DNA from: Maricaulis maris
GTDB taxonomy: Bacteria > Pseudomonadota > Alphaproteobacteria > Caulobacterales > Maricaulaceae
Direction: 5' to 3'
Length of the DNA: 64,000 nucleotides
NCBI RefSeq assembly: GCF_003634045.1
Contig: NZ_RBIM01000009.1
Span: 1 to 64,000 of the forward strand
Shown: positions 35,002 through 35,255 of the stretch, piece by piece
How positions within the stretch are numbered: the stretch's first letter is position 1
How the letters are laid out: the number at the start of each line of letters is the position of its first letter
Program-made: the position numbers and the translations under genes
The notes under the pieces: model-generated
What the model was told of the DNA's origin: nothing
What the model saw: the letters and a program-made list of their open reading frames with translations, nothing else
The model's database searches: none

Positions 35002-35045
35002 GCACCCATAGCTCAGCTGGATAGAGCGCTGCCCTCCGAAGGCGG
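35002..35045 (+). pseudogene. 5' half of tRNA-Arg(CCG), truncated at the ICE junction
   Basis: This fragment has the acceptor arm GCACCCA, a normal D-arm, and an anticodon arm with loop CTCCGAA (anticodon CCG). Homology to a tRNA stops right after the 3' side of the anticodon stem: no T-arm and no matching acceptor strand follow. It looks like the original host tRNA-Arg gene cut by integration of the element. A full-length tRNA-Arg(CCG) with a different acceptor stem lies about 130 bases downstream. Confidence 0.85.
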
Positions 35046-35145
35046 ATGTCAACGGGGCGCGTGACAAAGAGGAGACGAAAAAGGACTACAGGAACAAGGA
35101 TTTGCGAGGCCCTCGTTTTAATCTATAAACTCGCGAAAAGTTCAC

Positions 35146-35181
35146 GTAAGCACTGCGTAAGCAGTTGCGACACGGTAAGCA
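35146..35181 (+). repeat. Three short direct repeats (GTAAGCA) next to the intact tRNA
   Basis: GTAAGCA occurs at 35146-35152, 35157-35163 and 35175-35181, the last copy overlapping the first three bases of the complete tRNA. Short repeats of this type near an attachment site can be integrase arm-binding sites. This role is inferred. Confidence 0.45.
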
Positions 35182-35255
35182 CCCGTAGCTCAGCTGGATA
35201 GAGTGTCGGCCTCCGAAGCCGAAGGTCACAGGTTCGAATCCTGTCGGGTGCGCCA
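35179..35255 (+). tRNA. tRNA-Arg (anticodon CCG), complete, CCA encoded
   Basis: The cloverleaf is complete: acceptor GCACCCG pairs with CGGGTGC, the D-arm is GCTC with GAGT, the anticodon stem TCGGC/GCCGA holds loop CTCCGAA, and the T-arm ACAGG/CCTGT holds TTCGAAT. CCA is encoded at 35253-35255. It follows the broken 5' half and differs from it in the acceptor and anticodon stems, so it is not its simple repair product. It probably came with the element and could supply the function of the broken tRNA. Confidence 0.97.

What the first reader, a model, noticed from the sequence alone, without database searches (positions are those of the whole stretch)
35002..35255. Broken tRNA-Arg(CCG) next to a complete, different tRNA-Arg(CCG)
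The first copy is cut right after its anticodon stem, while a full copy with another acceptor and anticodon stem follows. Elements usually restore the tRNA they enter, but here the restored copy looks foreign. The ICE seems to break the host tRNA and bring its own replacement with the same anticodon. This would make loss of the element costly to the host.
Basis: partly seen in the sequence, partly recalled or inferred. Interest (0 to 1): 0.65.

Follow-up and report, generated by a model that had tools for sequence, protein, structure and literature searches.

The report
Conjugative element carrying a replacement tRNA
A 53.7-kb mobile DNA element with genes for bacterial mating has cut the cell's only arginine tRNA gene for the CGG codon in two and carries its own complete, differently sequenced copy to replace it; the trick is known in some phages, but here conjugative elements use it, and the same arrangement recurs across Alphaproteobacteria.

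Summary
Bases 35002-35040 are the 5' half of a host tRNA-Arg(CCG). The missing 3' half lies 53.7 kb away at contig position 88747-88791, beyond the window. Joined, the halves equal exactly the intact tRNA of relatives. Between them sits a Trb-type integrative conjugative element (ICE) with a tyrosine integrase beside its right end. attL and attR share only the anticodon loop plus a few bases, so no tRNA is rebuilt. Instead the ICE carries a complete tRNA-Arg(CCG) at 35179-35255, the only one found in this genome. The layout recurs: all 68 informative hits of an att pattern across Alphaproteobacteria had a complete tRNA-Arg(CCG) 156-358 bp downstream. Split host stems still pair perfectly (156/156) across 13 insertions. 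In one genome a second element sits inside the first element's tRNA. Element tRNAs mostly have altered but fully paired anticodon stems. This is the principle of phage 'tRNA-dependent lysogeny' (PMC10865867), here in ICEs: a new variant of a known kind. 'Loss is costly' is only partly right, because clean excision should restore the host tRNA. Expression and dependence are untested.

The parts
35002..35040 (+). 5' half of the host tRNA-Arg(CCG), up to and including the anticodon loop
   Evidence: Joined to contig 88747-88791 it is identical to the intact tRNA of relatives
35034..35041 (+). attL core CTCCGAAG (anticodon loop plus one base); the attR copy is at contig 88747-88754, outside the window
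   Evidence: Longest core kept in the att sites of nearly all elements compared
35041..35178 (+). left end of the element: spacer between the broken and the complete tRNA; its first ~11 nt are a degenerate likeness of the tRNA
   Evidence: Leaves the tRNA sequence after GTCA; no T arm or acceptor; alignable with spacers of other elements
35144..35163 (+). two direct repeats (ACGTAAGCA, GCGTAAGCA), probable arm-type integrase sites; similar repeats occur near the right end
   Evidence: CGTAAGCA in 51 of 53 different spacers; right end. Role is inferred
35102..35129 (+). promoter-like pair TTGCGA-16-TATAAA in the spacer, possible promoter of the element's tRNA (inference)
   Evidence: TTG nearly invariant in the alignment of 53 spacers, but the consensus scan found no promoter
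35179..35255 (+). complete element-borne tRNA-Arg(CCG), the only CCG tRNA found in the genome
   Evidence: ARAGORN and Rfam; tRNA inventory
35042..64000 (.). part of the ICE inside the window; it runs on to contig 88754 (about 53.7 kb in all)
   Evidence: 3' half of the host tRNA at contig 88747; empty site in relatives
40774..50024 (-). trbI, trbG, trbF, trbL, trbE, trbB conjugation genes
   Evidence: Pfam and NCBIfam
52883..57994 (-). traG coupling protein, RlxS/DUF3363 relaxase, SLT transglycosylase
   Evidence: Pfam and NCBIfam

Best explanation
A Trb-type ICE integrated, by its tyrosine integrase, into the anticodon loop of the host's tRNA-Arg(CCG). Its attP matches the tRNA only around that loop, so attL cannot form a tRNA and the host gene is left as two stranded halves 53.7 kb apart. 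The ICE carries a complete, divergent tRNA-Arg(CCG) about 140 bp inside its left end, which takes over reading of CGG codons. Precise excision would rebuild the native tRNA. Shown from sequence: the split, the empty site in relatives, the ICE genes, the single CCG tRNA and the recurrence in other Alphaproteobacteria. Inferred: expression, essentiality, excision, and that the altered anticodon stem makes the element's tRNA a poor target for its own integrase.
For: 3' half found at contig 88747-88791; joined halves identical to the intact tRNA of relatives, with flank homology ending at 35001 and resuming at 88792; integrase beside the right end; conjugation genes; only one ccg and no tcg tRNA; same layout with 61-100% identical integrases; 156 of 156 stem pairs across 13 split host tRNAs, shuffles at most 152; all 68 informative hits of an att pattern have a complete tRNA-Arg(CCG) downstream.
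Against: No expression, excision or transfer data. No confident promoter before the element's tRNA. The genome is a draft of 12 contigs, so a second CCG tRNA in a gap is not excluded. Seven of 81 element tRNAs share the host's anticodon stem, and one element-borne tRNA was itself hit, so the self-protection idea is weak.
Confidence: 0.92

Rival explanations
1. Classical integration with later decay: the element once restored the host tRNA with a 3' half at attL, that half degenerated, and an independently gained tRNA nearby took over.
For: The element's left end keeps a degenerate likeness to the tRNA for ~11 nt after the loop; neighbours in the integrase tree restore the tRNA classically. As a history of the whole family this may be true.
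Against: The same layout, with fixed spacing classes (mostly 166, 177, 179 bp) and a complete tRNA, is found in very different hosts; the att ends and the tRNA travel together, so in this genome it is the element's standing design, not local decay.
Confidence: 0.04
2. Deletion or tandem duplication of a host tRNA, without a mobile element.
For: Two similar tRNAs lie side by side, which a duplication would also give.
Against: The 3' half lies 53.7 kb away and completes the 5' half exactly; relatives have the empty site; integrase and conjugation genes lie between; host stems pair with each other and not with the element's copy.
Confidence: 0.01
3. The element's tRNA is cargo for another purpose, such as counteracting tRNA-cutting defences or codon supply, and its fit to the disrupted gene is secondary.
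For: PMC10865867 discusses such roles for phage tRNAs; the ICE carries many defence genes.
Against: It is always the same isoacceptor as the split target and always close to attL, and the anticodon loop is unchanged in all 81 pairs. It is the only CCG tRNA found here.
Confidence: 0.03

Closest known systems
tRNA-dependent lysogeny of actinobacteriophages (Fionnbharth, cluster L, Gaia; PMC10865867)
   Same: Tyrosine integrase with arm-binding domain; ~10-bp core around the anticodon loop; no tRNA rebuilt at the junction; the element carries a tRNA of the disrupted isotype.
   Different: There shown by genetics, for temperate phages of Actinobacteria and mostly tRNA-Lys, -Ile2 or -Leu. Here conjugative elements of Alphaproteobacteria, tRNA-Arg(CCG), with the tRNA close to attL; sequence evidence only. 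Nested replacement is not described there as far as I read.
Replacement of tRNA genes by phage-related inserts in Sinorhizobium meliloti (PMC11476347)
   Same: Alphaproteobacteria; the inactivated tRNA is replaced by a different isoacceptor gene carried by the insert.
   Different: Reported for prophages and phage-related islands, with no CCG arginine tRNA in the table read; here a Trb-type ICE.
Classical tRNA islands and ICEs (as defined for Islander, PMC4383910)
   Same: Tyrosine integrase, crossover in the anticodon loop, displaced 3' tRNA fragment at the far end.
   Different: In the classical case a fragment in attP restores the target at the junction; here the junction gene stays broken and a whole second gene replaces it.
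Trb-type (IncP-like) ICEs
   Same: trb conjugation set, TraG, RlxS-like relaxase.
   Different: Insertion strategy with a replacement tRNA; whether named ICE families do this was not tested.

Membership tests
tRNA-dependent lysogeny/integration | Short att core, so that no functional tRNA forms at either junction | tested here: met
   Core CTCCGAAG plus a few bases; attL hybrid below the tRNA cut-off and without cloverleaf
tRNA-dependent lysogeny/integration | Element encodes a tRNA of the disrupted isotype | tested here: met
   tRNA-Arg(ccg) 35179-35255
tRNA-dependent lysogeny/integration | Disrupted host tRNA is single copy | tested here: met
   Only one ccg and no tcg tRNA found in the draft genome
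tRNA-dependent lysogeny/integration | Element tRNA is required for viable integrants | not testable with these tools
   Needs genetics
tRNA-dependent lysogeny/integration | The element is a temperate phage (lysogeny in the strict sense) | tested here: not met
   Conjugation genes and no close phage integrase; att layout absent from viral contigs
Integrative and conjugative element | Integrase, relaxase, coupling protein and mating-pair ATPase between att sites | tested here: met
Integrative and conjugative element | Excision and conjugative transfer | not testable with these tools
   13 kb 99.98% identical to an element in another family suggests recent transfer
Classical tRNA-restoring island | Element end supplies the missing part of the target tRNA | tested here: not met
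   true classical cases in relatives are G146, G210 and G317

The most novel reading that the evidence does not exclude
A widespread class of alphaproteobacterial ICEs lives by serial capture of an essential tRNA gene: each carries a tRNA whose anticodon stem is changed so that its own integrase spares it while the tRNA stays functional, and successive elements overwrite one another's tRNA, so that the host's CCG tRNA becomes a horizontally exchanged gene.
Probability: 0.4. Interest if true: 0.75.

Novelty: new variant of a known kind. Interest (0 to 1): 0.6.

Why it matters
tRNA-dependent integration was described in 2024 for actinobacteriophages, with its wider prevalence and its relation to classical tRNA-restoring integration left open. 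These data place it in conjugative elements, with the same att layout across Alphaproteobacteria, and give an integrase tree in which whole-tRNA carriers lie among classical restorers. They show an essential host tRNA being replaced horizontally, sometimes twice in a row, and offer a testable idea of self-protection through the anticodon stem.

Tried and rejected
att pattern in IMG/VR viral contigs: 20 hits, none with a tRNA nearby, taken as chance. Phage records: best integrase match 28% identical. Samples of the class and the phylum: besides the window's genome only G481 showed the layout; one phylum-sample hit, G943, of the same class, was not followed up; no match outside the class. So the layout is rare per genome. 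Literature searches for an ICE precedent found none in the open library, which does not exclude one in subscription journals; two further searches failed on input rules. The search pattern fixed three bases of the host's anticodon stem, so the comparison of stems was repeated on free positions 27-28 and on unfiltered relatives. Simple deletion and tandem duplication were rejected by the empty site and the distant 3' half.

Full report
WHAT IS THERE. The window is contig C9, 1-64000, of a 3.57-Mb genome in 12 contigs. It holds one recognisable tRNA, tRNA-Arg(ccg) at 35179-35255. A truncated copy begins at 35002 and equals the host type through the anticodon loop (35002-35040). The genome search found the missing 3' half at C9:88747-88791, beyond the window. 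Joining 35002-35033 to 88747-88791 gives a 77-nt tRNA that is present intact, base for base, in relatives (all six loci checked, from genomes G001, G010, G016 and G017). Homology of the left flank to the empty sites of relatives ends at 35001; homology of the right flank starts at 88792. So this is an insertion of about 53.7 kb, not a deletion.

THE ELEMENT. A 478-aa tyrosine integrase with an arm-binding domain lies at 87243-88679 on the minus strand, 67 bp from the 3' half. The interior has trbI, trbG, trbF, trbL, trbE, trbB, traG, an RlxS-like relaxase and a transglycosylase: an integrative and conjugative element. Beyond CTCCGAAG (the anticodon loop plus one base) the element's left end keeps only a degenerate likeness to the tRNA for about 11 nt and then departs. 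The hybrid at attL lacks a T arm and a 3' acceptor strand, scores below the tRNA cut-off (22.2 against 29 bits) and does not fold as a cloverleaf. A 138-bp spacer with two CGTAAGCA repeats, similar to repeats near the right end, separates the loop from the complete tRNA.

THE REPLACEMENT. The arginine tRNAs found in this genome are tct, cct, acg and a single ccg, which is the element's copy; there is no tcg. From general knowledge of decoding, the ACG tRNA (inosine 34) does not read CGG, so a CCG tRNA should be essential. CGG makes 13.6 per 1000 codons in nine sampled host genes. The element's copy has perfect acceptor, anticodon and T stems but another anticodon stem (TCGGC/GCCGA against CTGCC/GGCAG).

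IT IS A FAMILY. Integrases 61-100% identical occur in some 15 further genomes of a 398-genome sample of the order. Wherever both ends could be read, the host 5' half is followed by a spacer and a complete tRNA, and a host 3' half lies beside the integrase; in G080 and G300 another insert lies between, and in G133 no matching end was found. G313, of another family, has an identical integrase and 13 kb that are 99.98% identical to this element. Conjugation genes are shared by the elements of G127, G027, G021, G014 and G313; the first element of G079 keeps only a TrbI piece and a weak TraG match. Host halves differ between hosts but fit each other: GCACCCA/TGGGTGC here, GGTCCCG/CGGGACC in G127, GCACCTA/TAGGTGC in G165, GCGCCTA/TAGGCGC in G021. 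All 156 acceptor and anticodon pairs counted over 13 insertions are Watson-Crick; shuffled partners gave a mean of 134.8 and at most 152.

The 80 loci listed hold 81 matches. Six are natural intact tRNAs, seven run off the sequence held, and all 68 others have a complete tRNA-Arg(CCG) that starts 156-358 bp after the start of the broken one. By their record titles they come from Rhodobacterales, Rhizobiales, Rhodospirillales, Sphingomonadales and Caulobacterales and from related metagenome bins. Some are the same genomes as the G handles. For most of these named loci only the left end was read, so that they too are ICEs is an inference.

NESTING. In G313 the first element's tRNA (5' half at C1:822718) is itself split by a second element, with a 34%-identical integrase and a GGTCCCT-type tRNA of its own. 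The 3' half of the first element's tRNA is at 873121 and that of the host at 924944. Paracoccus marinaquae (L151) shows two successive broken 5' halves before the complete copy. G079 carries two elements in tandem and G080 probably does too, on two contigs.

ANTICODON STEM. Over 81 host/element pairs the 5' strand of the anticodon stem differs at 0.33 per site, the acceptor at 0.11, the D region at 0.014 and the loop at 0; 7 of 81 keep the stem. Because the pattern fixed part of the host stem, positions 27-28 are the fairer test: CT or TT in 70 of 81 hosts against 18 of 81 elements (p=6e-17; for 58 unique pairs 48 against 14, p=2e-10). Thirty relatives not chosen by the pattern have CTGCC in 29 cases, against 2 of 27 different element tRNAs with CTGCC or TTGCC. 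These p-values ignore relatedness. My inference is that the change makes the element's tRNA a poor target for its own integrase; descent from a foreign donor is an alternative, and the nested and identical-stem cases show that any protection is not absolute.

EVOLUTION. In the integrase tree the clade of this element holds only whole-tRNA carriers and one unread row, and its nearest neighbour G210 restores the tRNA classically, as do G146 and G176. The label 'whole' needs four changes, three forced by well-supported branches, so the trait arose or was lost more than once (midpoint root, several long branches).

COMPARISON. The principle is that of tRNA-dependent lysogeny of actinobacteriophages (PMC10865867; [quoted passage not shown] Replacement by phage-related inserts is noted in Sinorhizobium (PMC11476347). 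Islander's definition of tRNA islands assumes a restoring fragment (PMC4383910). I found no ICE precedent in the open library. By its genes this element is not a phage, and viral collections lack the att layout. So it works like tRNA-dependent lysogeny, is an ICE, and is a new variant of a known kind.

LIMITS. Expression, essentiality, excision and transfer are untested. No consensus promoter was found, although a TTG in the spacer is nearly invariant. The assembly is a draft.

Noticed in passing
L071 2650-5818 (contig 76650-79818): The ICE carries a probable Gabija pair: GajA (PADLOC 740.6 bits) and GajB (597.1 bits).
   Followed up: partly
L071 9618-13099 (contig 83618-87099): A class II prokaryotic Argonaute (870.4 bits) next to its associated helical-REase protein (405.2 bits), beside the integrase.
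   Followed up: partly
L071 642-1259 and 7812-8636 (contig 74642-75259, 81812-82636): Two AbiEi antitoxin-like genes, each followed closely by another gene: two probable AbiE-like pairs in the same ICE.
   Followed up: partly
contig 88792-91897 (L071 14792-17897): The right flank is 97-99.9% identical to G010 and G017, while the left flank is only about 77-79% identical to the same genomes, and G016 has no match to the right flank; it may be an older or recently exchanged island next to the tRNA.
   Followed up: partly
window 35042-40500: The left ~5.5 kb of the ICE, with LysR regulators and a DUF4386 gene, is not shared with the near-identical element of G313, and the spacer and tRNA are of another type: mosaic exchange of the left end.
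   Followed up: partly
window 24251-25891: A GmrSD-N/HEC-06-like defence gene in the chromosomal part, next to gyrB.
   Followed up: no
L125 (G300:C2:418501-427000): An intact tRNA-Arg(CCG) lies about 5.1 kb before the element-borne one, as if a small classical element had later restored the host tRNA at the older attL.
   Followed up: partly
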